A stretch of DNA of 64,000 bases from Stappia stellulata (GTDB lineage: Bacteria > Pseudomonadota > Alphaproteobacteria > Rhizobiales > Stappiaceae), in NCBI RefSeq assembly GCF_020176715.1, contig NZ_JAIVMF010000004.1, forward strand, positions 124,001 through 188,000. The letters run 5' to 3'. Positions 495 through 53,483 of this stretch are shown in pieces. The position numbers were made by a program, and so were the translations under genes. How positions within the stretch are numbered: position 1 is the first letter of the stretch; every line of letters starts with the position of its first letter. A model generated the notes under the pieces. That model had not been told where the DNA came from and did no database searches. It worked only from the letters and a program-made list of their open reading frames with translations.

Positions 495-507
495 GGGTGG
501 TGGGAGG

Positions 508-2748
508 ATGCGTCACGATCACGGGTCTTCCTTTCCCGAACCGCCCGCGCCGCGCGCTGAACCGTTTCACCCGGACACGGAAACGGGTTCGGCCGCGTCC
601 GCAAACGGCCTGCTCGAGGCGCTTGTGCATGTCGCGCGGGTCCATGGACTGTCACCCAGCGCCGATGCGATCCTTTCCGCCGTCGCGGCCGATCCCGAGG
701 GGCTGACGCTCGCCGGGCTTGAGGAGGCCGCCGACGGGCTCGGCCTGCGCACGCATGTCGCGCGCCTGTCCTGGCGGCGGATCCCGCAGGTGTCGCTTCC
801 CGCCATCGTGTTCGACGCGGATGGAAGCGCTGTCGTGCTCACCGGCGTGTCGCGCGCGACCCGGACGCTGGAAATCGTCGCGCCGGCGGCCGGGACCTCA
901 TCCCATAGGGTAGAGGCCGGCAGCTTCGGCGGCGGCGGGGCGCTCATCTGCGTCTTTCTGGCCCCGGCCACCGGCGGTGGGGCCGATCCGGGCGAGGCCG
1001 GTGCCGGTGCCGGCGCACTGCAGCGCGGCCACTGGTTCTGGTCGGCGGTCCGGCGGCTGTGGCCCGACTATCTCCAGGTCGTGGTCGCGGCGCTGATCGG
1101 CAATCTGCTGGGACTTGCGACCCCGCTCTTCGTGATGAACGTCTACGACCGGGTGATCCCCAATCTCGCGATCCCGACGCTCTGGGCGCTGACCGCCGGC
1201 GTCGTCCTGGCGCTCTTGATGGATTTCGCGCTCAAGATCCTGCGCACGCGCATTGTCGACGATGCCGGGCGGCGGGTGGACATGGCGGTGGCAGGCCGGA
1301 TGTACGACAAGATCCTCGCCATGCGGCTGGAGGCGCGGGCCGACACCACCGGCGCCCTGGCAAATCGCATCCGCGATCTCGATACCGTGCGCGACGTGCT
1401 GACCTCCTCCACCGTGATCGCGCTGACCGACATGCTGTTCATCGGCGTGTTTCTCTGGGTGATGTGGGTGCTGGTCGGGCCGCTGGCGGCGATCCCCGCC
1501 CTTGCGGTGCCGCTGGTCCTCCTCGTCACCGGTCTGGTGCAGATCCCGCTCGCCGGCGCCCTGCGCGCCAGCCAGACCGATACCGCCCGCCGCCAGTCTT
1601 TGGTGGTGGAAACGCTCTCCGGCCTGGAGACGGTCAAGGCCGCCGGGGCGGAGGGCTTCCTGCGCCGTGCCTTCGACCGGGCGGTGGCGGTCGCCAGCCG
1701 CTCGACCGCGCGGGCGCGCGGCTGGGCCAATCTCGCCGCGTCCTTCACCGCCCTGGTGTTTCAGGGCGTGTCGATCCTGATCGTGGTCTTCGGGGTCTTT
1801 CTGGTGGTGGAGGGGCGCATCACCATCGGCGCGCTGATCGCGGCCAACATCCTGGCCGGGCGCGTGTTGGCGCCGCTCGGCAACATCGCGCAGACGCTGG
1901 CGCGGCTGCATCAGGCCCGCGCCGCGTTGCAGGGGCTCGACGGCCTCATGACGGCGCCGCCCGAACGCGCCCGCGATGCTCGTGCCCACGCTCATGCCCG
2001 CGTATCTGCGGCCGCCGCCGTCGAGGCGCCCGAGGCTGTCGGCTTCCAGCGGGTGTCCTTCACCTATCCGGGCGCACGGGACCCGGCGCTTGACGGTGTG
2101 AGCTTCTCGATCGCCCGCGGCGAGCGTGTCGGCATCATCGGCCGCGTCGGCTCGGGCAAGTCAACGCTCGCCCGGCTGATCGGCGGGCTCTACGATCCCA
2201 CTGCCGGCACCTGTCTGCTCCACGGCACGGACGCGCGCCAATATGCCGCCGCGACCCTGCGCCGGGAGGTCGGCGTCTGCCTGCAGGACGCGGAACTCTT
2301 CACCGGGACGCTGGGCGAGAACATCGCCATCGGCCGGCCCTTCGCGACGGAAGCGGATCTCGAGCGCGCGGTGCGGCTCTCCGGCGTTGCGGCCTTCGCC
2401 GCGCATCATCCCCTCGGCCTCGATCTGCCGGTCGCCGAACACGGACGCAATCTTTCCGGCGGCCAGCGCCAGGCGGTGGCGCTGGCGCGCTGCCTGATCC
2501 GGCGTCCGGGGATCGTCTTTCTGGACGAGCCCACCTCGGCGATGGATGTCTCCAGCGAGCGCGCGGTCTGCGCGAACCTGAAGACCCTTGCCGCGGAGGG
2601 GGTGACGCTGCTGATCGCCACCCACCGCGATGGCCCGCTCGATCTGGTGGACCGGCTGCTGGTGTTCGAGGCCGGGCGGCTCGTCATGGACGGGCCAAAG
2701 GCGGAGGTGCTGGACAAGCTGCGCGGCGGCGGGGAGGGCGCGCGATGA
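508..2748 (+). CDS. Type I secretion ABC exporter (LapB/RTX type) with degenerate C39-like N-terminal domain
   Basis: A 746-residue exporter half-transporter. Residues ~30-130 resemble the peptidase C39-like domain of RTX exporters but lack a catalytic cysteine (the corresponding helix reads V-A-R-V-H-G-L-S), so it probably docks substrate rather than cutting it. Residues ~175-470 form the transmembrane domain. The nucleotide-binding domain has Walker A G-R-V-G-S-G-K-S-T (from ~residue 545), signature L-S-G-G-Q, Walker B I-V-F-L-D-E-P and H-loop A-T-H-R. It should power export of a large, C-terminally signalled protein through the adaptor and TolC-like channel on either side. The stop overlaps the next gene by 4 bp. 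A LapB-type adhesin exporter is favoured by the LapG-like protease downstream; no substrate gene is visible. Confidence 0.9.
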   Translation: MRHDHGSSFPEPPAPRAEPFHPDTETGSAASANGLLEALVHVARVHGLSPSADAILSAVAADPEGLTLAGLEEAADGLGLRTHVARLSWRRIPQVSLPAIVFDADGSAVVLTGVSRATRTLEIVAPAAGTSSHRVEAGSFGGGGALICVFLAPATGGGADPGEAGAGAGALQRGHWFWSAVRRLWPDYLQVVVAALIGNLLGLATPLFVMNVYDRVIPNLAIPTLWALTAGVVLALLMDFALKILRTRIVDDAGRRVDMAVAGRMYDKILAMRLEARADTTGALANRIRDLDTVRDVLTSSTVIALTDMLFIGVFLWVMWVLVGPLAAIPALAVPLVLLVTGLVQIPLAGALRASQTDTARRQSLVVETLSGLETVKAAGAEGFLRRAFDRAVAVASRSTARARGWANLAASFTALVFQGVSILIVVFGVFLVVEGRITIGALIAANILAGRVLAPLGNIAQTLARLHQARAALQGLDGLMTAPPERARDARAHAHARVSAAAAVEAPEAVGFQRVSFTYPGARDPALDGVSFSIARGERVGIIGRVGSGKSTLARLIGGLYDPTAGTCLLHGTDARQYAAATLRREVGVCLQDAELFTGTLGENIAIGRPFATEADLERAVRLSGVAAFAAHHPLGLDLPVAEHGRNLSGGQRQAVALARCLIRRPGIVFLDEPTSAMDVSSERAVCANLKTLAAEGVTLLIATHRDGPLDLVDRLLVFEAGRLVMDGPKAEVLDKLRGGGEGAR

Positions 2749-4058
2749 GACCGCCGCGCGACGAGGCCTTCGCAAACGATGTGCGCGCCGCATTGATCCG
2801 GCGGCGCGGCACGCGGGTCTGGCCGCTGCTGCTGGTGCTTGTCGTCTGTCTGGGCGCGGGCATTGCCTGGGCGCATTACGCGGTGATCGAGGAGGTCACC
2901 GCCGGCAGCGGGCGTATCATCGCCTCGTCGCAGACGCAGGTGGTGCAGCCGCTGGAGGGCGGGCGGATCGCCGCCATCGAGGTCGCGGAAGGCGACATTG
3001 TCGAGGCGGGGCAGGTGCTCTTGCGCATCGACGACACCGACGTTGCCTCGCAGTTGGGCGAGCTTCGCCAACGGCGGCTGGCGCTGACGATGCGCGGCGA
3101 CCGGCTGCGGGCGGAGGCGACCGGCACGCCCTTGCGGTTTTCCGTGAGGGGGCGCCAGGCGGAGGATCTCGTTTCAGGAGAGCGCGCGCTTTATGCCGCC
3201 CGACAGGCCGCGCTTGCCCGGGAACTGTCGGTGATCGACCAGGTGCTGGCGCAGCGCCGGCTGGAAAAGGTCGAGCTGGAAACGCGGCTGGACGAAACCC
3301 GCGGCACCATCGAGCTGCTCGACCGCGAGCTCGGCAAGGCCCGCGAATTGCAGAAACTCGGCGCCTATCCGGAGATGGACCTGCTGCGGCTGGAGCGTCA
3401 GGCGCGCACGGAGAAGACCGAAATCGCGGTCTTGGACGCTTCGCTGCCGCGCGCGGCGGCTGCCATCGAGGAGGCGGAGGCGCGCCGTGCCAGCGCCATG
3501 AGCGGTTTTCGCGCCAAGGCGCATGAGGACTTGACCGCGACCCTGTCGGATCTCTCGGTGCTGGAGCAGACCCTGCGCTCCGCGGAGGACAAGGTGCGCC
3601 GCACCGTTCTCAAGGCGCCGGTGCACGGCATCGTCAACAAGCTGATGGTGACGACGCTTGGCGCGGTGGTGCGCCCGGGCGAAAGCATCGCCGAACTGGT
3701 GCCGCTCGACGACACGCTGCTGGTGGAGGCGCGGATCCGGCCGAAGGACGTTGCCTTCGTGCGACCGGGGCAGGAGGCGAGCGTCAAGGTCACGGCCTAT
3801 GACTTCACCATCTACGGCGATCTGCCCGGGCGGGTGGAGCGCATCAGCGCGGATAGCATCGCCGACGAAGAGGGGCGAACCTACTACCGCGTGGTTGTTC
3901 GCACGGAAAAGACCTTCCTTGGCGAGGAAAAGGATTCTTTACCATTGATTCCGGGAATGGTGGTTTCTGTCTCCATCTTAACCGGAGAGAGAACAGTCCT
4001 GAATTACCTTCTGAAGCCAATAATAAAGGCGCGCTCGGAAGCTTTCCGCGAGAGATAA
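2745..4058 (+). CDS. HlyD family type I secretion periplasmic adaptor (LapC-like)
   Basis: A 437-residue membrane-fusion protein. A short cytoplasmic N-terminus is followed by one membrane helix (residues ~24-43), a lipoyl-like half (V-V-Q-P-L-E-G-G-R-I near residue 67), a long coiled-coil hairpin rich in Arg, Glu and Leu (~100-280), the second lipoyl half (K-A-P-V-H-G-I-V-N) and a C-terminal beta-barrel region ending near I-P-G-M-V-V-S-V-S-I-L-T-G, which is characteristic of HlyD/PrtE/LapC proteins. Its ATGA start overlaps the stop of the exporter gene, indicating translational coupling. It should bridge the inner-membrane exporter to the TolC-like channel. Confidence 0.92.
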   Translation: MRPPRDEAFANDVRAALIRRRGTRVWPLLLVLVVCLGAGIAWAHYAVIEEVTAGSGRIIASSQTQVVQPLEGGRIAAIEVAEGDIVEAGQVLLRIDDTDVASQLGELRQRRLALTMRGDRLRAEATGTPLRFSVRGRQAEDLVSGERALYAARQAALARELSVIDQVLAQRRLEKVELETRLDETRGTIELLDRELGKARELQKLGAYPEMDLLRLERQARTEKTEIAVLDASLPRAAAAIEEAEARRASAMSGFRAKAHEDLTATLSDLSVLEQTLRSAEDKVRRTVLKAPVHGIVNKLMVTTLGAVVRPGESIAELVPLDDTLLVEARIRPKDVAFVRPGQEASVKVTAYDFTIYGDLPGRVERISADSIADEEGRTYYRVVVRTEKTFLGEEKDSLPLIPGMVVSVSILTGERTVLNYLLKPIIKARSEAFRER

Positions 4059-8901: not shown

Positions 8902-9115
8902 CCGCGGACTTCAGCCATCGTCTTCCGTTCCGCGCGGGGCAAGATGCCCGCCGCGCGGGGCGGCAGTTTACCGGACACGGTGTTGCCGGCGGCCTTCGCC
9001 GGCGCGCGCGTCCGCCCTGCCGTAGCCGGACACCCCGGACGCGGCCCCTTGGCGGGGGCGCGTTCACAAGATCCGGCATGGTCCGACCGAGTTCATCTCA
9101 CCAGAGGAGCGTTAG

Positions 9116-10627
9116 ATGAAAACCAAACTGCTAGCCGCAATGCTGTTCGCCCTTGGCGCCTCGACGGCGCTGACGGTCCAGGCCGCCGATCTGCGCATCG
9201 GCCTCCAGGAAGACCCGGACGTGCTCGATCCCGATCAGTCCCGCACCTTCGTCGGCCGTATCGTCTATGCGTCGCTGTGCGACAAGCTGGTCGACATCAC
9301 CCCGGATCTTGAAATCGTGCCGCAGCTCGCCACGGGCTGGTCCTGGTCCGAGGACGGCAAGACCCTGACGATGGACCTGCGCGAGGGCGTGACCTTCCAT
9401 GACGGCACGCCGTTCGACGCGGAGGCCGTCAAGGCCAACATCGACCGCTCCAAGACCATGCCGGAAAGCCGGCGTAAGTCCGAGGTGAAGTCGATCGAAA
9501 GCGTTGCCGTGACCGGCCCGTATCAGGTCGCCTTCACGCTGACGGCGCCTGACGCGACCCTGCTTGCCCAGTTCGCCGACCGCGCCGGCATGATGCTGTC
9601 GCCGGCGGCGACCGCCGCCGCCGGCACCGACTTCGGCGCCAAACCGGTCTGCTCGGGTCCCTTCTCCTTCGTCGAGCGCATCCAGCAGGACCGGATCGTG
9701 CTGGCGAAGTTCGCCGACTACTGGAACGCGGACGCGATCCACTTCGACACGGTGACCTTCCTGCCGATCCCCGATACGACCGTGCGTCTTGCCAACCTGC
9801 GCGCCGGCGATCTCGACATGCTGGAGCGTCTCGCGGCGACCGACGCGGCTGCCGTCAAGGGCGATGCCGGGCTGGTCTATGCGGAGGCCGTCAGCCTCGG
9901 CTACCAGGGCATCACCGTGAACGTCGACAATGGCGAGCGCGGCGACAATCCCTTCGGCAACGAGGCGAAGCTGCGCCAGGCGTTCTCGCTGTCGCTTGAT
10001 CGCGACGCGATCAACCAGGTGGTGTTCGAGGGCGCCTTCGCGCCGGGCAACCAGCCGTTCCCGCCGACGAGCCCCTGGTACGACACGTCGCATCCGGTGC
10101 CCGCGCGCGATGTCGCCAAGGCCAAGGAACTGATGAAGGAAGCCGGATACGAGACGCTCGACGTCGAGGTCCAGGTCGCCAACAACCCCGTGCAGACGCA
10201 GATGATGCAGGTGGTCCAGGCGATGGCGGCGGAAGCCGGCTTCAACGTCAAGCTCAAGTCGATGGAATTCGCCAGCCTGCTCGCCGACCAGTCGGCCGGC
10301 AACTATCAGGCGAGCCAGGTGGGCTGGTCGGGTCGCGTCGACCCGGATGGCAACATCCACCAGTTCATGACCTGCAAGGGCGGCATCAACGATTCCAAAT
10401 ACTGCAACCCGGAGGTCGACCGGCTGCTGGATGCGGCGCGCACGAGCAACGATCTGGCCGAGCGCAAGAAGAGCTATGATGCGGCCCGGACGATCCTCGC
10501 CGAGGATATGCCGATCATCTATCTCTACCACCCGACCTGGATCTGGGCGCTGGATGACAAGATCGAGGGCTTCACCCCCTATCCGGACGGCATGATCCGG
10601 CTGGAGAACGTGAAGTTCAAATCCTGA
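9116..10627 (+). CDS. ABC transporter periplasmic substrate-binding protein, family 5 (dipeptide/nickel type)
   Basis: A 503-residue solute receptor with a Sec signal peptide (cleavage predicted after T-V-Q-A, about residue 23). The mature protein starts A-D-L-R-I-G-L-Q-E-D and carries the family-5 pattern L-A-T-G-W-S-W-S-E-D-G-K-T followed by F-H-D-G-T-P-F. It captures peptides or similar solutes for the flanking permeases and ATPases. A strong ribosome-binding sequence (AGAGGAG) precedes the ATG, and an intrinsic terminator follows, suggesting it is expressed at a higher level than the permease genes. Substrate unknown; the nearby gamma-glutamyltransferase points to gamma-glutamyl or other modified peptides. 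Confidence 0.92.
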   Translation: MKTKLLAAMLFALGASTALTVQAADLRIGLQEDPDVLDPDQSRTFVGRIVYASLCDKLVDITPDLEIVPQLATGWSWSEDGKTLTMDLREGVTFHDGTPFDAEAVKANIDRSKTMPESRRKSEVKSIESVAVTGPYQVAFTLTAPDATLLAQFADRAGMMLSPAATAAAGTDFGAKPVCSGPFSFVERIQQDRIVLAKFADYWNADAIHFDTVTFLPIPDTTVRLANLRAGDLDMLERLAATDAAAVKGDAGLVYAEAVSLGYQGITVNVDNGERGDNPFGNEAKLRQAFSLSLDRDAINQVVFEGAFAPGNQPFPPTSPWYDTSHPVPARDVAKAKELMKEAGYETLDVEVQVANNPVQTQMMQVVQAMAAEAGFNVKLKSMEFASLLADQSAGNYQASQVGWSGRVDPDGNIHQFMTCKGGINDSKYCNPEVDRLLDAARTSNDLAERKKSYDAARTILAEDMPIIYLYHPTWIWALDDKIEGFTPYPDGMIRLENVKFKS

Positions 10628-43767: not shown

Positions 43768-43893
43768 CACCGGGCGGGGCGGGCGGAATTCACGCAACGG
43801 TAACCAAGCGGGGCGATTGATCCCGCTCGCCTTTCCCGGATTAACCGAACTTGAGCCTCGCTGTCGGACACTCGCCTTTCAAGGGGAGTGGTC

Positions 43894-45195
43894 ATGGCGA
43901 AATCGTTTTTCAGGCAGGAGGCGCTCGACGCGGCGACCCGGGTGGACGAGACGCAGCGCACGATGCGCGTCTCCACCGCGGTGACGCGGCTGAGTGCCGC
44001 GGCCCTTGCCACCGCACTTGCCGGCGTCGTCACCTGGAGCGCCTTCGTCGACGTGCCGATCCATGTCACCGGCCACGGCGTTTTGGCGCGGTCCGGCGAG
44101 ACGCTGATCTCGCCGGTGCGCGCGGCGTCTTCCGGTTATGTCGCCGAGGTGCTGGTGAAGCGCGGCGATACGGTTGCCGCCGGCGACGTGCTCCTGCGGC
44201 TCTCCCAGCCTGAACGCATGGCCGCCTTGAAGAAGGCGGAGCGCATCCTGGAGGTGCTGAGCCGCAATGCGGAGCGCAGCGAAACCCTGCGGGCCGAAGA
44301 TGCCGAAGCCGAAAGCCGCAGCCACGCGCGCCAGCTGATCGCGCTCGGCGAGCGGATCGAGGCGCTGTCCTCCAAGAAGAGATGGCTCGACGAGCGCCGC
44401 GCCACCCTTGAAAAGCTCCATGCCGACGGGATCGTCTCGCTGGAGGCGGTGTCCAACGCGCGCATCGCCGCCGATGTCGCGGAAGACGATCTGGCGGCCG
44501 CCCGTGCCGCACAGGTCGCGCTCGACGTTGCCCGAGAGGAGGCAGCCTCCGAGCGCGAGCGTGCGGCCCTGTCCACCCGGCTCGAACTGGAGCGGCTGCA
44601 GGCCGAGGTCGCGGAAATCCGCGCCGATCTCGAGGCCGGTTCGACCGTCACCGCCGATGCGCCCGGCCGCGTCATCGCCATCAACACGCGCCTCGGCGCA
44701 CTCGCCGCCCCCGGTCAGCCGCTGCTGGAAATCCTGGTCGACGGCACGTCCGGTGCCGATCCCGACGCGCTGGAGGCGGTGGTCTTCGTGCCGCTGTCGC
44801 AGGGCAAGCGGCTGTCGCCGGACGACCGCGCGCTGCTGACGCCTGCGGATCTGCCGCTCGACCGGCACGACCGTCTGATCGCCCGCGTGATCTCGATCTC
44901 GGAGGTTCCCGCCTCCTCGCAGGCGCTTCAGTTCGCGCTTGGCGACGACACGCTGGCGGAAAAGATCTCCGCCGGCGGGCCGACCTTCGAGGTGCGGCTG
45001 GCGATGGAGCGCAAGACGGAAGGGAGCACCGGCTACGCCTGGACCGGCGCGCCGCCCCCCGGCGTGACCCTGTCGCCGGGCACGCCGCTCAGCGCCGACG
45101 TGACGGTGGAACGCCGTCCGCTGCTGGCGCTTGCCGTGCCCGCGCTCAAGCGCTTCCTGCATCTTGAGGCCGACGACTGGACGGGCCGTCCATGA
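43894..45195 (+). CDS. NHLP/NHLM bacteriocin system HlyD-type secretion protein
   Basis: A 433-residue membrane-fusion protein. A cytoplasmic N-terminus (F-F-R-Q-E-A-L-D-A) leads to one membrane helix (~30-50), then a lipoyl-like S-S-G-Y-V-A-E-V-L-V-K-R-G-D-T-V, a long Ala/Glu/Arg coiled coil (~100-260) and the second lipoyl half. The F-R-Q-E-A-L-D start and the order HlyD - peptidase ABC - ABC are characteristic of exporters linked to nitrile-hydratase-leader (NHLP) and Nif11 peptides. It overlaps the next gene by 4 bases. ATG at 43894 is preferred, with GGGGAG upstream. Confidence 0.88.
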   Translation: MAKSFFRQEALDAATRVDETQRTMRVSTAVTRLSAAALATALAGVVTWSAFVDVPIHVTGHGVLARSGETLISPVRAASSGYVAEVLVKRGDTVAAGDVLLRLSQPERMAALKKAERILEVLSRNAERSETLRAEDAEAESRSHARQLIALGERIEALSSKKRWLDERRATLEKLHADGIVSLEAVSNARIAADVAEDDLAAARAAQVALDVAREEAASERERAALSTRLELERLQAEVAEIRADLEAGSTVTADAPGRVIAINTRLGALAAPGQPLLEILVDGTSGADPDALEAVVFVPLSQGKRLSPDDRALLTPADLPLDRHDRLIARVISISEVPASSQALQFALGDDTLAEKISAGGPTFEVRLAMERKTEGSTGYAWTGAPPPGVTLSPGTPLSADVTVERRPLLALAVPALKRFLHLEADDWTGRP

Positions 45196-47351
45196 CGGGT
45201 TTCGGGTCCCGGCGGGCGCGCACCATCCTGCAGATGGAGGCGGCGGAATGCGGCGCCGCCTGTCTCGCCATGGTGTTGAGCGCCCACGGCCGGGAAATCG
45301 TGCTGGAGGACGCGCGCGAGCGCTGCGGCACCTCCCGCGACGGGGTGGATGCGGCAGCCCTTGCCCGCGCCGGCGAAAGCTATGGCCTCAAGGTCAAGGC
45401 GGTGCGGCGCGAGCCGGAGGATCTGGCGGAACTGCCGCTTCCCGCGATCCTGCACTGGAACTTCAATCATTTCGTGGTGCTGGAAGCCGTGAAGGGCGAC
45501 CGCTTCGTGCTGCTCGATCCGGCGGTCGGCCGGCGGGTCGTCACCCGCGCGAAGCTCGGCAAGGCGCTGACCGGTCTGGTGCTCGTCATGGTGCCGGGCG
45601 AGAGCTTCAAGGCCGGTGGCCGTCGCCCGATGGCACTTCCGGCGCTGCTGCGCCAGGCGGCCGGCTCCTGGGACGCGATGGCCATCGTCTTCGTCTGCGG
45701 CGTGGTCGGGATCATTCCGGGGCTGGTTCTGGCGGGTGCGATCCAGACCTATTCCGACTATGTGGTGGCGCAGGGCCGCCGCGACTGGCTGATCTTCATC
45801 CTTGTCGCGCTCGCCGCGACGCTTCTGGTGCAGGTCGCGCTCGGCGCGCTGCGCGAATGGACGGTCGCCGCGCTGAAATCCAAGATCGGCGTTGTCGTGG
45901 CGGCGCGCGCCTTCGAGCATGTGCTGTTCCTGCCGCTGTCCTTCTTCGCGCAGCGCAATGCCGGCGAGGTGGTCTCGCGGCTGCGCATCGGCTCCGAGAT
46001 CGGCGGCACCGTCGCAGGCCCGCTGGCGCAGATGCTGCCCAACATCGCCGTCGCCGGCGGCTATCTGGCGATCATCTGGCTCTATGACGCGGTGCTCGGC
46101 GGCATCGTCACGGCAATTGCGCTCGCCAATCTCGTCGTGCTGATCCGCCTGTCGGAACGCCTGAGCGAGGCGACGCGGCTGCAAAACGTGCTGGAAGGGG
46201 CGGCAAGCGGCGTGGCAACCGCCGGTTTCATGGCCTTCGATGCCTTCCGGCTGCTGGGCCGCGAAGCGCTGTTCGCCTCGCGCTGGCTGACGGCGGAGGA
46301 AGCCGCGCTCGATGCCGAGCAGCGGCTCGGACGCATCCGCGCGGCGGTCAATCTCGGCCCGGCGGCGGCGATGCTCCTGATCAGCATGTGCGTGCTCGGC
46401 GCCGGCGCTTTTCGGGTGATGCAGGGCGATCTGGCGCTGGGCGGTCTTCTGGCGCTGCAGGTGCTTGCCGGCCTCGTTGCCGCGCCGATTGCCGCCATTG
46501 CCTCCCACTATTGCGCGCTTCAGGAATCCGCCGGCGCGCTGATGCGCCTCGACGACCTGATCGACCATGCCGCCGATCCCCAGATCAACCGCGGCGCGGC
46601 CTATCCGGCAAACACGGCCGATGCGGCCGCGCCGCTGCTGCGCCTCGAGGCGCTCTCGTTTGGCTTTGGCACGGGCGCGGATCTGTTTTCCGGTGTGGAT
46701 CTGGCGTTTTCGGCGAATGAACTGACCGCGATCACCGGCGTTTCCGGCGCCGGCAAGTCGACGCTCGCCCGTCTGGCGGCCGGCCTTGTCGCGCCGCGCG
46801 CCGGACGGGTGCTGTTTGAGGGCCGTCCGCTCGGCGACTGGCCGCACGAGAGCCTGCGCCGGCGCCTGCAATATGTGCCGCAGGCTAGCGCGGTGATGAG
46901 CGGCACCATTCGCGACAACATCACCATGTGGGACGAGACCATCGCGCAGGATGCCATCGACGCAGCACTCGAGCTTGCCGGCGCGCAGGAGATGGTTGCG
47001 CGCGCCGGTGGCCTTACGGCGATGCTGTCCGCCGACCGTCCCGGCTTGAGCGGCGGCGAGATCCAGCGGCTGGCGCTTGCCCGTGCGCTCGCCCGCCGGC
47101 CGCAGGTGTTGGTGCTGGACGAGACGACATCCGCGCTCGATGCCTTGAGCGAGCAGCGCGTGCTCGACGGTCTCAGGCGCTCGGGCGCGGCGGTGCTTCT
47201 CGTGTCGCACCGTCCGGGGTCGATCCGGCGTTGCGACCGCGTGCTTCATCTGGACGGCGCGGGCGGTGTTTCGCTGCGCGCCACTGTCGAAGACGGGTCC
47301 GCGGAGGCGCAGCCCATGCAGCCGCGTGACGCGGGGAGGGCGGTCGCATGA
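45192..47351 (+). CDS. NHLP/NHLM bacteriocin export ABC transporter with C39 leader peptidase
   Basis: A 719-residue peptidase-exporter. The N-terminal C39 domain is intact: Gln14 in L-Q-M-E-A-A-E-C-G, catalytic Cys20, His93 in N-F-N-H-F-V-V-L and Asp109 in L-L-D-P. It should cut double-glycine leaders during export. Transmembrane helices fill ~165-440. The ATPase domain has Walker A G-V-S-G-A-G-K-S-T, signature L-S-G-G-E and Walker B L-V-L-D-E-T-T. The two neighbouring exporter genes overlap it by 4 bases. The GG-leader protein encoded 2.4 kb downstream is the obvious candidate substrate. Confidence 0.92.
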   Translation: MTGFGSRRARTILQMEAAECGAACLAMVLSAHGREIVLEDARERCGTSRDGVDAAALARAGESYGLKVKAVRREPEDLAELPLPAILHWNFNHFVVLEAVKGDRFVLLDPAVGRRVVTRAKLGKALTGLVLVMVPGESFKAGGRRPMALPALLRQAAGSWDAMAIVFVCGVVGIIPGLVLAGAIQTYSDYVVAQGRRDWLIFILVALAATLLVQVALGALREWTVAALKSKIGVVVAARAFEHVLFLPLSFFAQRNAGEVVSRLRIGSEIGGTVAGPLAQMLPNIAVAGGYLAIIWLYDAVLGGIVTAIALANLVVLIRLSERLSEATRLQNVLEGAASGVATAGFMAFDAFRLLGREALFASRWLTAEEAALDAEQRLGRIRAAVNLGPAAAMLLISMCVLGAGAFRVMQGDLALGGLLALQVLAGLVAAPIAAIASHYCALQESAGALMRLDDLIDHAADPQINRGAAYPANTADAAAPLLRLEALSFGFGTGADLFSGVDLAFSANELTAITGVSGAGKSTLARLAAGLVAPRAGRVLFEGRPLGDWPHESLRRRLQYVPQASAVMSGTIRDNITMWDETIAQDAIDAALELAGAQEMVARAGGLTAMLSADRPGLSGGEIQRLALARALARRPQVLVLDETTSALDALSEQRVLDGLRRSGAAVLLVSHRPGSIRRCDRVLHLDGAGGVSLRATVEDGSAEAQPMQPRDAGRAVA

Positions 47352-49540
47352 GCGGGCAGATGGGAAACGATTTCTTCCTGCGCTCGGCCGAGCGCATCGA
47401 GACGCTGCTGACCGAGCCGCGCCCGGCAATGGCGACGCCGACACCGGTGCTGGTCGACGCGCTGCATGCGGCTGCTGACGCGGCGCAGTCGAAGCTTGTG
47501 CCGGGCAGCGCGCTGGTGCCGGGCGAGCCGGCGGCAGCCTCCATCGAGCGGCTGGCGCGCGCCGCCGGCCTTCAGGTGCGCCAGGTTCGGCTCAGCGACC
47601 AGAGCATCGGCGAAAGCCCGGTGCCGATCCTCGCGCTCCGCAAGCCGGCGAGGGAGGATACCGATGCGGACGCACCCGCCGAAGCGGTGCTGCTGACGCG
47701 CGACGGGCCGCGCTGGCGGGTCGCGGATGCGGGAAGCCGCTGGAAACCGGGACCCGCGCGCCGACTGCCGCTCGACGACTTCGAGGAAACCGCCTTTCTG
47801 CTTCTGCCGGCCCTTCCCGACACACGGCTGACCGGCAGGGCGCTGCTGCGCTTCGGCCTGCCGCAGGCGCGCGGCGATCTCGCTGCCTTCTTCGCCTTCA
47901 CGCTGCTGGCCGGCATGGCCGTGGCAACGCTGCCGCTCGTCACCGGGCCGCTGTTTGAAACCGTCGTGCCGGAAGGCGATTTCGGCCTGCTCGCCAATAT
48001 GCTGGCGTTCTTCGTCGTCCTCTTCGGCGCCAACCTCCTGACACGCTTTGCCGCCGGCATCGCAAAGCTTCGGCTTGACGGGCGCATCGGCTTCTTCCTG
48101 CGCGCGGCGGCCATCGACCGCGCGATCCGCATCGCCGATGCCACGGCCGCGAGCGCCGGCGACTTGCCGCCGGCACCCATCGCAGCACTTTCCACCCGCT
48201 CTGTGGAACGCTGGCATCGGGGTGTGTGGGGCATGGGGCTTTCCGTCGTCGCGGCGCTTCTCGTCGCGCTTCCCAATATCGCGGTCGTTGCCGCAACCTC
48301 GGCCATCGGCGCTGTGGTCATCGGTGGCGTGGTCGCCATCGTCATTCTGGCCGGTGCGCTGATCGCCCGCCGCCGGGTGCAGGCGCTTCTGAGCGGTCTG
48401 GCCGCCCCGCAAAGCTGGATGAGCACCGCCTATGAGGCGCTGACCATGATCGACACGGTGCGCGCCACCGCGTCCGAAGGCCGGGTGTTCAGCCGCTGGA
48501 CCGACGGATTTTTATCGCTGCGTCACCGCTTCCTGAAAGCCGACCGGGTCGGGGCTGCCTCTTCCGCGCTGGAAGAGGCGGTGGAAGGCTCTCTGGTGTT
48601 GTCGGCCATTGTCGCGCTGGCGCTTGCCGGTGGTGTCGTCGCCGGCGGGGCGCCGATCTCGCTCGTCGTTGCCGCCGGCAGCATCGCCGGCGCGGTGTCG
48701 GCCGTGCTCGGCGCCTTCGGTCAGGCAACGATGCTGGGCCTTCAGTTTCGTATGATCAAGCCGCTGCTCGACGGCGTTCCGCGCCCGGCGATCGACGGCT
48801 GGACGCCGCCGCAGCTTGGCGGCGCCATCGAAGCCTGCGATCTCACTTGCCGGCACCGTGCCGGCGCGCCGGCGGCGCTGGAGGGCGTGAGCTTTCGCGT
48901 CGAAGCGGGCGAGCACATCGGCATCGCCGGACCGTCGGGCGCGGGCAAGTCGACACTGATCAAGGCGCTGCTCGGGCTGATCCCGCGCGAGGCCGGGTCG
49001 GTCACCTTCGACGGGATCGATCTCGACCGGCTCGACGACCGGCTGCTGCGCCGCCAGATCGGCATTGTCGGCCAGGGCGGGAAGCTGTTTCCCGGAACCC
49101 TGTTCGACAATATCGCGGCCGGCGCGCCAATCACCCCGGCGGAGGCCCGGGAGGCCGCGCGCAAGGCCGGCCTGGAGGCCGACATCGAGGCGCTGCCGCT
49201 CGGCCTGGGCACTCCGGTCGGCGACACCGAATGCGGCTTTTCCGGCGGCCAGGTGCAGCGCATCCTGCTGGCGCGCGCCTTTGCCGGCCGTCCGAAGATC
49301 CTCATTCTCGACGAGGCGACCAGCGCGCTCGATCCCGCCCTGCAGGAGCATGTCGCCTGGGCCATCGACGAGATGGATGCGACCGTGATCAGCGTCGCGC
49401 ATCGGCTCGAGACGCTTGCCGCCTGCGACCGGATCCTGGTGCTTGACCAGGGCCGCTTCGTGGAATGCGGCGCCTACCGCGAGCTGGTCGCCGGAAACGG
49501 CCTGTTCTCGCAGATGATCGAGGCACAGGACGCGGCGTGA
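47348..49540 (+). CDS. NHLP/NHLM bacteriocin export ABC transporter, second permease/ATPase
   Basis: A 730-residue exporter half without C39 residues. Residues 1-160 form a soluble N-terminal region typical of the second ABC protein of NHLM systems, ~175-460 the membrane domain, and the rest an ATPase with Walker A G-P-S-G-A-G-K-S-T, signature F-S-G-G-Q-V-Q-R, Walker B I-L-I-L-D-E-A-T and H-loop V-A-H-R. It probably pairs with the peptidase-ABC as a heterodimer. It is the third gene of the coupled run; a 239-base gap follows. Confidence 0.9.
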   Translation: MSGQMGNDFFLRSAERIETLLTEPRPAMATPTPVLVDALHAAADAAQSKLVPGSALVPGEPAAASIERLARAAGLQVRQVRLSDQSIGESPVPILALRKPAREDTDADAPAEAVLLTRDGPRWRVADAGSRWKPGPARRLPLDDFEETAFLLLPALPDTRLTGRALLRFGLPQARGDLAAFFAFTLLAGMAVATLPLVTGPLFETVVPEGDFGLLANMLAFFVVLFGANLLTRFAAGIAKLRLDGRIGFFLRAAAIDRAIRIADATAASAGDLPPAPIAALSTRSVERWHRGVWGMGLSVVAALLVALPNIAVVAATSAIGAVVIGGVVAIVILAGALIARRRVQALLSGLAAPQSWMSTAYEALTMIDTVRATASEGRVFSRWTDGFLSLRHRFLKADRVGAASSALEEAVEGSLVLSAIVALALAGGVVAGGAPISLVVAAGSIAGAVSAVLGAFGQATMLGLQFRMIKPLLDGVPRPAIDGWTPPQLGGAIEACDLTCRHRAGAPAALEGVSFRVEAGEHIGIAGPSGAGKSTLIKALLGLIPREAGSVTFDGIDLDRLDDRLLRRQIGIVGQGGKLFPGTLFDNIAAGAPITPAEAREAARKAGLEADIEALPLGLGTPVGDTECGFSGGQVQRILLARAFAGRPKILILDEATSALDPALQEHVAWAIDEMDATVISVAHRLETLAACDRILVLDQGRFVECGAYRELVAGNGLFSQMIEAQDAA

Positions 49541-49659
49541 CGACCCGGGCCGGGCCTGACCGAAGATCGGCAGCAGCCCCCTCGACTCATTGTCTTTTGT
49601 CGCGGCCTTCAAGTTATCGCGATGCTCTTTTGGAGACATCGTTCGCTCAAACGCGCTCA

Positions 49660-49779
49660 TTCATATTATAAAACTGTTTACCCTTTGATATAATAAAAGA
49701 ATTTTCCGGAAAAATTAGAATAATGGCAATCTCTGTTCCCTAGGGTTCACTCCGCAATCAACAAACCAGAGGTGGCGGG
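49660..49779 (+). promoter_or_regulatory. AT-rich promoter region of the GG-leader protein gene
   Basis: The only strongly A+T-rich patch of the exporter locus. It holds a TATAAT sequence at 49689-49694 and the perfect 12-base palindrome TTTTCCGGAAAA at 49702-49713, then AGAGGTGGCGGG as ribosome-binding region. The substrate gene therefore probably has its own promoter, separate from the exporter genes. No good -35 box is seen at normal spacing. Confidence 0.55.
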
Positions 49780-50766
49780 ATGAACAGGGAAATTCGCAAC
49801 AAGTTCGACAAGCTCGATGATGCCATTCCGCTGGAGACCCTGGACGGGGTGTCCGGCGGCACGCGCGTGTTTTCGACTGACGACGGCGGGTGGAGCGATC
49901 CCGACCTTGGCGTTCATGCCGGAGCCTCCGGCTCGACGGGCGACAGCAATCTCGGCGCCTCCGGCAGCGCCCATGCCGGCGACGGCGTCTCCGGTCATGC
50001 CGGCCACGGAAGCGTGTCGGGTGCGGCGGGGGCCGGCGCCAGCGCTTCGGGCGAGGTTCATGCGCATTCCGGTCCGGTCAGCGCGGGTGCGTCCGGTGAG
50101 GCGCAGGCCGGGGCCGGCGTCTCCGGCTCGGCCCATTCCAACAGTTCCGATACGGGCGCTTCGGCCTCCGCCGGCGCCTCTGCCGGTGTTTCCGGCGATG
50201 CCAGCGCGTCGGTCGGCACGCATGGCGTTTCGGCCGGCGAGAGCGCCGGCGGATCTGCGACGGCCGGCGCCAGCGCCAGCGGCTCGGGCGACATCCAGCA
50301 CGGTCATGGCTCCTACGGGGCGGGCGGATCCGGCAACGCGATGGCGGGCGCCGGTGCGGAAGCTCATGCCGGCGGCAGCGCGTCGGTTCACGGCGTCGGG
50401 TCGGGCGGCGGGTCCGGCGGTGTCGACGCGGGCGAGGTCGGTGTTGGCGGCGAGGCACATGCAGGCATTTCGCATCACCATATCAATTTCGGTCTCGGCG
50501 GCGATCTGGCGGCCGGTCTCGGCATCCACTTCGACTTCCACATCTCGATCGATACGCGTCCCTTCGAGAACGCCTTCCACTTCCTGGAGCATTCCTTTGG
50601 CGGGGCGGTTGCCCATGCGGCGTCCGAGGCCGGTCACGACATCAGCCATGCGGCGCATGAGGTTGGCCATGCGGTCAGCCACGAGGCGCATGCGGTGGAA
50701 CACACCGTCAGCCATGCCGCCCACAAGGTCGGCCATGCGGTGAAGCATTTCTTCCATCACTGGTGA
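49780..50766 (+). CDS. Double-glycine-leader Gly/Ala/Ser-rich secreted protein with His-rich 11-residue repeats
   Basis: A 328-residue protein I do not recognise. Residues 1-27 are a textbook GG leader ending L-E-T-L-D-G-V-S-G-G, with Leu at -7, Val at -4 and Ile at -12, so the C39 exporter upstream should cut after Gly27. Residues ~28-225 are low-complexity Gly/Ala/Ser with scattered His. Residues ~226-262 look like amphipathic strands (H-H-H-I-N-F-G-L then I-H-F-D-F-H-I-S-I-D). Residues 274-328 consist of five 11-residue units; the last four have His at positions 2, 6 and 9. There is no Cys. It could be a bacteriocin, a metal-binding surface protein or a matrix protein. Confidence 0.85.
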   Translation: MNREIRNKFDKLDDAIPLETLDGVSGGTRVFSTDDGGWSDPDLGVHAGASGSTGDSNLGASGSAHAGDGVSGHAGHGSVSGAAGAGASASGEVHAHSGPVSAGASGEAQAGAGVSGSAHSNSSDTGASASAGASAGVSGDASASVGTHGVSAGESAGGSATAGASASGSGDIQHGHGSYGAGGSGNAMAGAGAEAHAGGSASVHGVGSGGGSGGVDAGEVGVGGEAHAGISHHHINFGLGGDLAAGLGIHFDFHISIDTRPFENAFHFLEHSFGGAVAHAASEAGHDISHAAHEVGHAVSHEAHAVEHTVSHAAHKVGHAVKHFFHHW

Positions 50767-50781
50767 TCGCGGAAACGCGCG

Positions 50782-50798
50782 GGCCGCGTCATGCGGCC
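50782..50798 (+). other. Small hairpin between GG-leader gene and next gene
   Basis: GGCCGC-GTCAT-GCGGCC, six perfect pairs, no T-run. It could adjust the relative expression of the two genes. Confidence 0.35.
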
Positions 50799-50835
50799 TG
50801 ACACCCAATTGAAGACTTTCCGGTTTCAGGAGTGA

Positions 50836-51291
50836 ATGAACATGAGCATGGGCAAGGAATCCGTTTCAAAGGTGAAGGACATCGTCACCGGCCTGGCCGC
50901 CGGCGGCGCATCGCTGGCCGGCTGGTCGGCGGGCGAGGCCGCGCTCCTCGGCGTCAAGGCCGAAGAGGCGACCACCGCGCGGCTGGCGCTCGGTCAGGAT
51001 TTCGACGGCGCCATGGATGCCTCCATCTCGGAAGCGGAAATGGTGCTGGTGATGGACGTCTTCTGCAAGGCGATGGACGAGACCGGCGACGCGCAGGCCG
51101 CCTTCGACCGGGTGGTCGCGATCAAGATGAACGCGGCCGAGGGCGCGCCGGGCGCGGAGACCGCGTTGAAGGTGGCGCGGGCCTCCTTCCTGGATGCGGT
51201 ACGCGGTGGCTTCGCCCCGCAGGCGGCAATGCTCAGCGCCTTCATCTCGGCCGCCGCGACGATGCGCCTGGCCGCCGCCGGCACACACTGA
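50836..51291 (+). CDS. Small Ala-rich helical protein, hypothetical
   Basis: A 151-residue protein without recognised family. The N-terminus (K-V-K-D-I-V-T-G-L-A-A-G-G-A-S) has a Gly-Gly near residue 24, but Ala instead of a bulky residue at -4, so it is a poor C39 leader. The rest is predicted helical, with acidic first half (F-D-G-A-M-D-A-S-I-S-E-A-E) and Ala-rich end, and one Cys near residue 75. It starts 69 bases after the GG-leader gene, with GGAG upstream, and ends before a terminator, so the two are probably one transcript. It may be an immunity or partner protein, or a second cargo. Confidence 0.7.
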   Translation: MNMSMGKESVSKVKDIVTGLAAGGASLAGWSAGEAALLGVKAEEATTARLALGQDFDGAMDASISEAEMVLVMDVFCKAMDETGDAQAAFDRVVAIKMNAAEGAPGAETALKVARASFLDAVRGGFAPQAAMLSAFISAAATMRLAAAGTH

Positions 51292-51323
51292 GCGACCCGC
51301 GCAGCCGCTTTCAAGACACAGTC

Positions 51324-51351
51324 AAAAGGGCCGGCAATGTCGGCCCTTTTT
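51324..51351. terminator. Bidirectional intrinsic terminator
   Basis: AAAAGGGCCG - seven-base loop - CGGCCCTTTT(T): a 10-bp perfect stem with A-run before and T-run after, able to stop transcription from the plus-strand export locus and from the convergent oxidoreductase gene. Confidence 0.88.
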
Positions 51352-51393
51352 GCGTTGGGGATACGCGAATGCTCGATCTGGAAAGACCGTGCC

Positions 51394-52932
51394 TCAGTCG
51401 CGCCTGAGACCTCTCAGACGGCCGGGCGAGAGCGTCCCGGACGGGTCAAGGGCTGCGCGCAGACGGGTGAGAACGGCCGGCCAGTCGTCGTCGGCGGTGG
51501 CGATCTCGTCGAGCGCATCCGCATCCGCAAGACCGAGCCGATAGGGCGCAAAGCCAAGCGCATGACAGCCCCTTATGAGCGCGTCATGGGCGGTCATCGC
51601 GGCCGCGTCGGCGCCGGGCGTTGAGCGGTCCCAGGCGAGCGAGACATAGCCGTGCAGGGCGCGTGCGGTCACCGCCTGCAGGCCGAGTGCCGGATAAAGC
51701 GGCGTTCCGGCGGCGACCGTTTCCAGCAGGTCGGCGAGCGCGCGCACCGCCTGGCCCTCCAGCGGAAGCGCCGGACAGACCCACAGGAAACCGCAGCCGT
51801 CGAGATCCGGATTGCCCGGCACCTCGGGCCGCTCCGCCTTGCCCCAATAGGCGCTCATCACGTTGTTGCCGTCGCTGAAGCCGGTGATCGGCGTTTCCAG
51901 CCGCCGGCCGTCGGCGTCGCGGTCGCTTTGAACCTGGATGTCGCGGCAGACCTTGGCCAGTTCGCTGGTGACGATCCTGACGCTCAGTTGCAGCAGGTCG
52001 GGATGGGCGGCGGTGACGACCACCGAAAGCGCCCAGTCGTCCGGTTTCGTGGCGAGTGCGCCGGCGTCGCCATGGTGGCGGCCGACGAGCGAGGAGACGC
52101 GTTTCGCGCCGTTCCAGATCGCCGCCGCGTGGGGCGCGACGAGGCCGGCGTGGATCAGCCGGGTCAGCGTCGCAAGGGCCGCATCGAGGCCGTCTTTCGT
52201 GCCGATGTCGGCGAGGATCATGTTGGCATGGGCAAGGGTCGGCTGCAGCGCGATGCGGCCCGACAGCATGACGCCGAGGCCGGACTGGCTGAACAGCCCT
52301 TCGACCAGCGGGCCGGCGGGACGGGCATGGCGGGCGGAGAGCGGCTCTTGTGCGAAGCGCGCGTGGCCGGTGCGAAACCGCTCGCCGGTCGCAAGCGCCA
52401 CGTCGAGATCCCAAAGTGATGCGAAGCGGTCGCCCAGCGGTCCGGCGCCTTCGCCGCGCTCCAGCGCATTGGCGAGCACGCTGGCGTCGCGCGGTCCGCC
52501 GAAGGAGGGAAGGTGAAAGGCCAGACCCTCTGCCTTCAGCCGGGCCTGCAGCGCCTCGAAGGTGACGCCGGGCTCGATGCGCGCCGTGCCGCGCGCCATG
52601 TCGACATCAAGGATGCGGTCGAGCCCGGAGAGATCGAGGATCGCGGCATCGCGCGGCGGCAGGCGCGAGCCGAGCCCCCAGCTGCGGCCGCGACTGACCG
52701 GGTGCACGGCCACGCCGTGGTGTGCGGCGAGCGCCAGAAGCGCCGGCACCGCGTCGGCGGTTTCGGGCGACAGCACCGCCAGCGGCCGGGCCGTCCAGGG
52801 GAGAGTGGCGGAGGTCCATTCCGCGCCAATAGCGTCGCCGGCTGCGACCTGTCCGGCTCCGATGCGCGATCTCGCGGCCTCCAGGAAGGCGGCAAGCGCG
52901 CTCGGGTCGTTGGCAGGAGGCGTGGATGGCAC
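51394..52932 (-). CDS. VAO-type FAD-binding oxidoreductase (PCMH domain)
   Basis: A 512-residue flavoprotein. The FAD-binding half contains V-S-R-G-R-S-W-G-L-G-S and L-D-L-S-G-L-D-R-I-L-D-V-D, followed by A-R-I-E-P-G-V-T-F-E-A-L, the order seen in 4-cresol dehydrogenase and vanillyl-alcohol oxidase. V-L-A-N-A-L-E-R-G-E-G and F-R-T-G continue that alignment, though the whole is divergent. No signal peptide. It converges on the export locus. It could oxidise a phenolic or an alcohol, or act on the locus product. Confidence 0.75.
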   Translation of the reverse strand: MPSTPPANDPSALAAFLEAARSRIGAGQVAAGDAIGAEWTSATLPWTARPLAVLSPETADAVPALLALAAHHGVAVHPVSRGRSWGLGSRLPPRDAAILDLSGLDRILDVDMARGTARIEPGVTFEALQARLKAEGLAFHLPSFGGPRDASVLANALERGEGAGPLGDRFASLWDLDVALATGERFRTGHARFAQEPLSARHARPAGPLVEGLFSQSGLGVMLSGRIALQPTLAHANMILADIGTKDGLDAALATLTRLIHAGLVAPHAAAIWNGAKRVSSLVGRHHGDAGALATKPDDWALSVVVTAAHPDLLQLSVRIVTSELAKVCRDIQVQSDRDADGRRLETPITGFSDGNNVMSAYWGKAERPEVPGNPDLDGCGFLWVCPALPLEGQAVRALADLLETVAAGTPLYPALGLQAVTARALHGYVSLAWDRSTPGADAAAMTAHDALIRGCHALGFAPYRLGLADADALDEIATADDDWPAVLTRLRAALDPSGTLSPGRLRGLRRD

Positions 52933-53202
52933 GGAGCGCGGGTCCCTGGGTGCGAGGTGCCGCGATTAGACGCGATTCGCGCGGCATTGGCGACGGGTGT
53001 CCCGGACGGGAGGTTGAGTGTTATTCCCCTTGGTCGCGGCGGAAATCCCCGTCGCCGGCCCCTGACGCGCGGCGGCGCGAGATGCGGCAGATTTTGCAAG
53101 ATCGGCAAACCAGAGATCAATTTTCGCAAATTCCGGACTTCATTTTGCAAAAATTGCACAAGCGACGGCGCCGCGCGCCAGGGCCGCCTTGTCTGAAAAA
53201 AA

Positions 53203-53232
53203 AAGCGCGCGAGGGGCGCCCCTCACGCGCTC
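53203..53232. repeat. Palindromic repeat copy 1 (left end of REP-like element)
   Basis: AAGCGCGCGAGGGG-CGCCCCTCACGCGCTC: a near-perfect hairpin. A 29-base near copy occurs at 53427-53455, about 195 bases away and in the same orientation. The only differences are around the centre (GGGGCGCCCC versus GGGTGGCCC). Confidence 0.7.
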
Positions 53233-53290
53233 CAGAGTGATGACAAAGGGCGCGACTGATCTCCCGCGTCATACCGGGCAAGCGCAAGCG

Positions 53291-53394
53291 CGATCCGGTA
53301 TCGGAGAGCCAAGAACCTGTCCGTTTGATGGAGTTGCCAGGGGGCGGGTCCCAGCCTCTCCGATCCCGGATCGCAGCTCACGCTGCGTCCGGGA
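53291..53394. repeat. Inverted repeats of the REP-like element core
   Basis: CGATCCGGTATCGGAGAG (53291-53308) is repeated inverted at 53356-53373 with one mismatch. The right arm overlaps a second hairpin, 53364-53394, with a 13-bp stem (TCCCGGA / CGCAGC halves), one bulged T and a TCAC loop. Such CCGGGAT-rich dyads are typical of dispersed palindromes in alphaproteobacterial intergenic DNA. Confidence 0.7.
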
Positions 53395-53426
53395 GGATGC
53401 CTGCTCGAGGCCTTTGCATCATCCTC

Positions 53427-53455
53427 AAGCGCGCGAGGGTGGCCCTCACGCGCTC
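53427..53455. repeat. Palindromic repeat copy 2 (right end of REP-like element)
   Basis: AAGCGCGCGAGGG-TGGCCCTCACGCGCTC, matching copy 1 except at the centre. It lies 28 bases after the doeD stop on the minus strand and could also serve as its terminator structure. Confidence 0.65.
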
Positions 53456-53483
53456 TTCGATGGTGCGGTCCGGCGGTCGCGGA

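What the first reader, a model, noticed from the sequence alone, without database searches (positions are those of the whole stretch)
43894..51351. NHLM-type exporter dedicated to a His-rich GG-leader protein
Three overlapping genes encode an NHLP/NHLM bacteriocin export trio (HlyD, C39-peptidase ABC, second ABC). Downstream is not a classic RiPP precursor with maturation enzymes but a 328-residue low-complexity protein with an exact GG leader, a small helical protein and a shared terminator. The C39 triad (Cys20, His93, Asp109) and the leader (Leu -7, Val -4, Gly-Gly) fit each other. Exporters of this class are normally associated with modified peptides, so a large, unmodified, histidine-rich cargo would be a new use.
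Basis: partly seen in the sequence, partly recalled or inferred. Interest (0 to 1): 0.9.

Follow-up and report, generated by a model that had tools for sequence, protein, structure and literature searches.

The report
Six-gene cassette exporting histidine-rich protein
A few alphaproteobacteria carry a self-contained six-gene cassette that makes, perhaps chemically alters, trims and exports a large histidine-rich protein of unknown family, through a transporter type best known for small peptides.

Summary
Window 43894-49540 encodes HlyD, C39-ABC and ABC genes related to the NHLM export trio; 49780-50766 encodes a 328-aa His-rich protein with a GG leader, then comes a 151-aa helical protein. The cargo is not random low complexity: it is under purifying selection, 10 of 11 copies are exactly 328 aa, its middle alternates hydrophobic and polar residues, and its tail is an 11-residue His repeat. 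All 11 cargo genes found sit directly behind the trio. A close relative has an empty site lacking these six genes. So 'no maturation enzyme' is unsafe. Large GG-leader cargo is not unique: another trio (L039) neighbours an 828-aa GG-leader protein. Best reading: a dedicated production-and-export cassette for an extracellular, probably metal-binding, beta-rich protein. The linkage is shown; export is well supported; modification, metal binding and the helical protein's role are inferred. New variant of a known kind.

The parts
43894..45195 (+). HlyD-type membrane fusion protein, NHLM type
   Evidence: TIGR03794 184.4 bits, cut-off 156.2
45192..47351 (+). C39 peptidase-ABC exporter; Q14, C20, H93, D109
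   Evidence: PF03412 4e-34; TIGR03796 best hit, below cut-off; residues 11 of 11
47348..49540 (+). second ABC exporter, no C39 domain detected
   Evidence: TIGR03797 best hit, below cut-off; no Peptidase_C39 match; Walker A, signature and Walker B motifs
49780..49860 (+). cargo leader, 27 aa ending GVSGG
   Evidence: L-7, V or I-4, GG in 11 of 11
49861..50763 (+). mature cargo, 301 aa, 34 His, no Cys
   Evidence: no Pfam, NCBIfam or PHROG match up to E 1
49897..50469 (+). cargo residues 40-230: alternating small-hydrophobic/polar residues, weak period near 25
   Evidence: autocorrelation z -5.6 at lag 1, +6.0 at lag 2 against 1000 shuffles; the period has no shuffle control
50314..50316 (+). 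codon of Tyr179, the only invariant Tyr, in QHGHG[SAN]YGA
   Evidence: 11 of 11
50599..50763 (+). cargo residues 274-328: 11-residue His repeats ending in Trp
   Evidence: extra copies in Salinarimonas L064
50836..51291 (+). small helical protein, 151 aa, six predicted helices
   Evidence: AlphaFold2 pLDDT 80.4; no PDB or BFVD match with E<=0.001
51324..51351 (.). hairpin, probably a terminator, between convergent genes
51394..52932 (-). FAD oxidase, VAO/PCMH type, GTG start, 512 aa
   Evidence: PF01565; PDB relatives include eugenol/vanillyl-alcohol oxidases and p-cresol methylhydroxylase; 11 of 11 cassettes
43788..53479 (.). stretch without match in close relative G011: holds the six-gene unit
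   Evidence: a weak 63-base similarity begins at about 53097, so the right border is uncertain

Best explanation
The locus is one six-gene unit. The cargo is made with a 27-residue leader; the C39 domain of the first ABC protein cuts after Gly26-Gly27, and the two ABC proteins with HlyD and a TolC encoded elsewhere push the 301-residue product out of the cell. Before export a cytosolic VAO/PCMH-type flavoenzyme most likely oxidises the cargo or something bound to it. The exported protein is a beta-rich repeat body with a C-terminal amphipathic helix whose one face is a ladder of histidines, and most likely acts outside the cell as a transition-metal- or haem-binding structural or buffering protein. 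The small helical protein most likely acts inside as a partner (chaperone or self-protection). Shown: genes, leader/peptidase fit, co-inheritance of all six, purifying selection, residue patterns. Inferred: cleavage and export (about 0.85), oxidase acting on the cargo (about 0.4), metal or haem binding (about 0.45), structural or buffering role rather than toxin (about 0.55).
For: Trio next to every cargo gene found, 11 of 11. In 250 relatives strong cargo hits and strong small-protein hits fall in the same 6 genomes. In two draws of 397 order genomes the close exporter (59% or more) and the oxidase (E<=1e-45) fall in the same 6. Of 14 same-genus genomes, 4 have HlyD and the oxidase at 62% or more, 10 have neither at E<=1e-20. 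Empty site in G011: flanks about 90% identical, six genes missing. Only these six genes recur in all seven cross-family genomes. Cargo against G202: 74% identical, HlyD 42%, ABC1 61%, ABC2 57%. Histidine ladder and 22 invariant His. The genome has three TolC-type genes.
Against: No metal-related gene, regulator or Rfam element was found in the unit. The oxidase is transcribed from the opposite strand, so it need not be co-expressed. The Tyr expected in the VAO phenol pocket (residue recalled) is Leu in 11 of 11. The cargo model is very poor (pLDDT 39.8). The leader lacks the extended acidic pattern described for NHLP/N11P leaders (PMC2887384, passages). Against Salinarimonas the cargo (59%) is no more conserved than C39-ABC (57%) or oxidase (60%). 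Nothing was tested at the bench.
Confidence: 0.5

Rival explanations
1. It is a bacteriocin-like toxin: the exported beta/His-helix protein inserts into or coats rival cells (in the manner of the glycine-zipper Cdz proteins), and the small helical protein is its immunity protein.
For: GG leader, C39 exporter and a small helical gene directly downstream is a usual bacteriocin layout (recalled); alternating pattern and amphipathic tail could be membrane-active; Cdz in Caulobacter is an alphaproteobacterial precedent (PMC5380434, passages).
Against: Cargo is conserved in length (10 of 11 exactly 328 aa) and sequence, with dN/dS well below 1; the small protein has no clear transmembrane segment (maximum 19-residue hydropathy 1.48), whereas CdzI is predicted to have three; a fixed flavoenzyme is unexplained.
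Confidence: 0.25
2. It is an adhesin, biofilm matrix or silk/amyloid-like surface protein; the histidines serve pH-dependent assembly rather than metal binding, and the oxidase cross-links it.
For: Gly/Ala/Ser-rich body with strict alternation (six orthologs tested) and a weak period near 25; near-constant length.
Against: No known anchoring or adhesin domain in Pfam or NCBIfam; many of the invariant residues are His (22 of 119).
Confidence: 0.2
3. The FAD oxidase acts on a small molecule and is only a physical neighbour of an export cassette for an unmodified cargo.
For: Convergent, not in the operon; the named PDB relatives act on small molecules (substrates recalled).
Against: Present in 11 of 11 cassettes, without ortholog in 10 of 10 cassette-less congeners, and missing together with the rest at the empty site.
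Confidence: 0.35

Closest known systems
NHLM/NHLP export trio (TIGR03794, TIGR03796, TIGR03797; Haft 2010, PMC2887384)
   Same: Three genes HlyD, C39-ABC, ABC; NHLM models are the best NCBIfam hits of all three; GG leader with L-7 and V or I-4
   Different: Both ABC proteins below the curated cut-offs; cargo is not an NHLP or N11P peptide; no TOMM or lanthionine enzyme among the six genes
L039 (genome G130): trio with 828-aa GG-leader protein
   Same: NHLM-like trio next to a large GG-leader protein and small helical proteins
   Different: No homology shown between the cargos (shuffled controls score as high); small proteins only weakly similar (hhalign probability 16%, E 0.0016); no oxidase
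Cdz glycine-zipper system of Caulobacter (PMC5380434)
   Same: Alphaproteobacterial ABC/HlyD exporter for glycine-rich proteins, with a small extra gene
   Different: CdzC and CdzD are 86 and 84 aa, CdzI is a predicted three-TM protein, and the authors name no modification enzyme in the cluster
VAO/PCMH flavoenzymes (eugenol oxidase, vanillyl-alcohol oxidase, p-cresol methylhydroxylase)
   Same: PF01565 domain; PDB relatives from 8e-31, the best one titled only 'Oxidoreductase'; C-terminal Tyr-Arg pair kept in 11 of 11
   Different: Pocket Tyr (recalled) replaced by Leu in 11 of 11; fixed partner of a protein export cassette
Metal-buffering peptides such as bufferins (PMC12452194, start of abstract in the listing)
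   Same: Idea of a genetically encoded, enzyme-modified metal-binding polypeptide
   Different: No MNIO enzyme among the six genes, no Cys in the cargo, C39/ABC export

Membership tests
NHLM export system | HlyD component passes TIGR03794 | tested here: met
   184.4 vs 156.2 bits
NHLM export system | C39-ABC passes TIGR03796 and ABC2 passes TIGR03797 | tested here: not met
   590 vs 853 and 426 vs 709 bits, though best hits
NHLP/N11P RiPP precursor | nitrile-hydratase- or Nif11-related leader (NCBIfam models) | tested here: not met
   no NCBIfam match for the cargo up to E 1
TOMM or lanthipeptide cluster | cyclodehydratase/YcaO or lanthionine enzyme in the unit | tested here: not met
   six genes scanned in Pfam; none
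C39/GG-leader exporter pair | C39 catalytic residues and matching GG leader | tested here: met
   11 of 11; cleavage itself not testable here
RiPP | post-translational modification of the precursor | not testable with these tools
   candidate enzyme linked; no mass data
VAO/PCMH flavoprotein family | FAD_binding_4 domain and similarity to VAO-type enzymes beyond it | tested here: met
   (best hit aligned at residues 13-266 strongly and 381-505 weakly, 15 bits)
VAO/PCMH flavoprotein family | phenol-binding Tyr in the GYG position (recalled) | tested here: not met
   Leu in 11 of 11
Cdz glycine-zipper bacteriocin | two cargo proteins under 100 aa and a three-TM immunity protein | tested here: not met
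   301-aa cargo, helical protein without clear TM segment
Class II microcin | small cargo, under about 10 kDa (recalled) | tested here: not met
   mature 301 aa

The most novel reading that the evidence does not exclude
A new kind of ribosomal, enzyme-modified, secreted protein: a VAO/PCMH-type flavoenzyme oxidises the single invariant tyrosine (Tyr179, inside QHGHG[SAN]YGA) of a 300-residue beta/His-helix protein, perhaps via a quinone methide that a neighbouring histidine traps, giving a cross-linked metal-binding protein exported by an NHLM-like C39 transporter.
Probability: 0.15. Interest if true: 0.88.

Novelty: new variant of a known kind. Interest (0 to 1): 0.6.

Why it matters
It extends the C39/NHLM-like export route from small peptides to a large, conserved, patterned protein, and ties that route to a flavoenzyme family for which two literature searches (all 8 papers listed and none with the VAO term, 8 of 42 listed and none of these with it) showed no case of acting on ribosomal peptides. 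The unit is compact and has a natural empty site in a close relative, so export, modification and metal binding can be tested by gene deletions and mass spectrometry.

Tried and rejected
Structure of the cargo: AlphaFold2 gave pLDDT 39.8; I did not search folds with it. Its long strands agree with the alternation test but carry no weight.

Fold of the small protein: pLDDT 80.4, but no match with E<=0.001 in PDB or BFVD; its profile found one PDB sequence at E 1.8. The cargo profile found none up to E 1.

Homology of the cargo to the large proteins of L039 and L098: hhalign scores 14.6 and 19.1, while up to 30 shuffled controls each reached 16.7 and 20.7 (the score of the reversed control was not printed): rejected. 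The L098 protein was read as an open frame only; its true start and leader were not established.

Small protein against the two L039 helical proteins: probability 16%, E 0.0016: inconclusive.

Mobile origin: no hits in plasmids (at E 1e-100) or viral contigs. No repeat is shared by the two borders of the unit; a roughly 30-base palindrome occurs twice near the right border (53203 and 53427) and once at the empty site. PADLOC matched only the ABC domains of the two ABC proteins. No sigma-70-like site on the + strand of 49400-51500.

Weak hits dropped before counting: cargo profile in G081 (23 bits, two stops); small-protein profile in G005, G012, G226 (17.8-19.1 bits); oxidase homologs at 32-37% in G026, G031, G103.

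Other-exporter loci: 25 of 27 fetched were searched for the oxidase; L042 and L043 (short contigs) were left out. Some of the 25 are on short contigs, and some lack a detected HlyD or separate ABC2 (for example L104, L106). Further distant exporter places (G717, G785, G112:C136) were not fetched with flanks.

The class-wide search of 385 genomes with the small protein found only the window genome. The species scan used two peptide patterns and found 4 loci, fewer than are known here, so it is not exhaustive. The regular expression missed His93/Asp109 in some rows; one search corrects this by alignment.
Full report
What is there. The exporter genes overlap by 4 nt each. NCBIfam gives the NHLM models as best hits for all three, but only HlyD passes its curated cut-off, so I call the system NHLM-like. 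The C39 residues Q14, C20, H93 and D109 are conserved in 11 of 11 orthologs, and all 11 leaders carry Leu at -7, Val or Ile at -4 and Gly-Gly. The cargo matches no Pfam, NCBIfam or PHROG family up to E 1; the small protein has only sub-threshold matches (E 0.11 to 0.2).

Who has it. HlyD was sought in 151 relatives (16 with a match at E<=1e-20, 4 of them close, the rest at 22-29%), cargo and small protein in 250 each, the C39-ABC protein in 397 genomes of the order (27 at E<=1e-110), and the cargo in the named-species collection with two patterns (4 loci). In all 11 the order trio-cargo-small protein is the same. Of the 27 genomes the six with an exporter at 59% or more all have the cargo; the others are at 38% or less.

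The missed gene. The gene that converges on the operon, 51394-52932 on the minus strand, is a VAO/PCMH-type FAD oxidase. It sits at the same place and orientation in 11 of 11 cassettes, 24-102 bp from the small gene, and in 0 of 25 other loci with related exporters. In 151 relatives (7 with any match at E<=1e-20) orthologs at 70% or more occur only in the four cassette-bearing congeners; in 397 order genomes matches at E<=1e-45 occur only in the six cassette genomes. In the neighbourhoods only these six genes recur in all seven cross-family genomes; two other genes matched in one or two (shown for four reference genomes). In G011, a close relative, both flanks match the window at about 90% nucleotide identity, and window 43788-53479 has no match there, apart from a weak 63-base similarity near 53.1 kb: the missing stretch holds exactly the six genes. 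This is the strongest evidence that they form one unit.

The cargo. Pairwise dN/dS is 0.09-0.19 against three congeners. Against G202 the cargo is 74% identical while HlyD is 42%, C39-ABC 61%, ABC2 57%, small protein 60%, oxidase 56%; residues 40-230, the part that looks like low complexity, are 83% identical. Against Salinarimonas the cargo (59%) is no better conserved than C39-ABC (57%) or oxidase (60%). Ten of 11 copies are exactly 328 aa although four-residue insertions and deletions occur; the Salinarimonas copy is 387 aa from the start chosen, mainly through extra tail repeats. In residues 40-230 hydrophobic and polar residues alternate strictly in the window copy (z -5.6 at lag 1, +6.0 at lag 2, fading by about lag 9) and likewise in the five other orthologs tested, with a weak period near 25 that has no shuffle control: the pattern of beta strands with small side chains. 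The tail repeats H-x-V-S-H-x-A-H-x-V-G every 11 residues, which puts His on one face of a helix; the i+4, i+7, i+11 count exceeded every one of 2000 shuffles in 11 of 11. Of 119 invariant residues 22 are His; Tyr179 is the only invariant Tyr and in four copies the only Tyr at all. AlphaFold2 could not model the cargo.

The small protein is predicted as six helices with fair to good confidence and has no recognisable fold relative in the two libraries searched.

How it most likely works. Leader recognition and cleavage by the C39 domain, export by the two ABC proteins with HlyD, and exit through one of the three TolC-type proteins of the genome follow from established knowledge of C39 exporters. 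That the flavoenzyme acts on the cargo is inferred from co-inheritance; that it is cytosolic is my reading of its N-terminus, no predictor was run. Metal or haem binding is inferred from the histidine ladder. The conservation of length and sequence speaks against an arms-race toxin but does not exclude it.

Known context. Haft and colleagues (PMC2887384, passages seen) tied the trio to NHLP and N11P precursors, state that the link to transport is stronger than to any tailoring enzyme, and that not all such loci are next to TOMM machinery. Here, trios in L099, L102 and L109 neighbour short GG peptides; of 10 neighbour genes scanned none matched a Pfam family that I know as a peptide maturase, one being a luciferase-like monooxygenase. 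L039 has a trio beside an 828-aa GG-leader protein. So large or apparently unmodified cargo is not unique to this window. The Cdz paper and PMC6959600 were seen as passages only. Searches for VAO-type enzymes with ribosomal peptides (8 of 8 listed, 8 of 42 listed), for Cohaesibacter with bacteriocin or histidine-rich terms (8 of 70 listed) and for His-rich or GG-leader metallophores (12 of 71,452 listed) listed nothing that describes this cassette; they cover open-licence PubMed Central only, and most hits of the last three were not seen.

Verdict. Observation confirmed; interpretation partly supported. The cassette is real, compact and unusual, and the sixth gene changes its reading from 'unmodified cargo' to 'possibly oxidised cargo'.

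Noticed in passing
window 43788-53479 versus L137 (G011): Empty site for the six-gene unit between a dihydrodipicolinate-synthase-like gene and an aminotransferase gene (names read by eye); no repeat shared by the two borders, but a roughly 30-base palindrome occurs twice near the right border.
   Followed up: yes
L142 5696-11234: At the same chromosomal place a cassette-less congener has asparagine-synthetase-like, GNAT/ATP-grasp-like and peptidase-like genes (read by eye), so this spot may be a variable site.
   Followed up: no
L039 114-10207: NHLM-like trio with an 828-aa GG-leader protein and two small helical-looking proteins 46% identical to each other; no Pfam match for the large protein up to E 0.1.
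   Followed up: partly
L111 14700-16000: Near an NHLM-like trio, a frame with the leader-like stretch LSDDQLEMVAGG followed by a Cys-rich Gly/Ala repeat: a possible cysteine counterpart of the His-rich cargo.
   Followed up: no
L102 996-1223 and 9179-9406: Two nearly identical GG-leader peptides, one on each side of the trio; a second such pair seems to lie at 1278-1496 and 8915-9124.
   Followed up: no
L109 6095-7379: Four different GG-leader peptides in a row directly upstream of an NHLM-like trio; the four neighbour genes scanned are a membrane/CBS protein, two regulators and a 2-hydroxyacid dehydrogenase.
   Followed up: partly
window 1-4058: A second type I secretion-like ABC gene (508-2748) with a TolC-type gene that starts just upstream of the window; this TolC could serve the His-rich cargo exporter.
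   Followed up: partly
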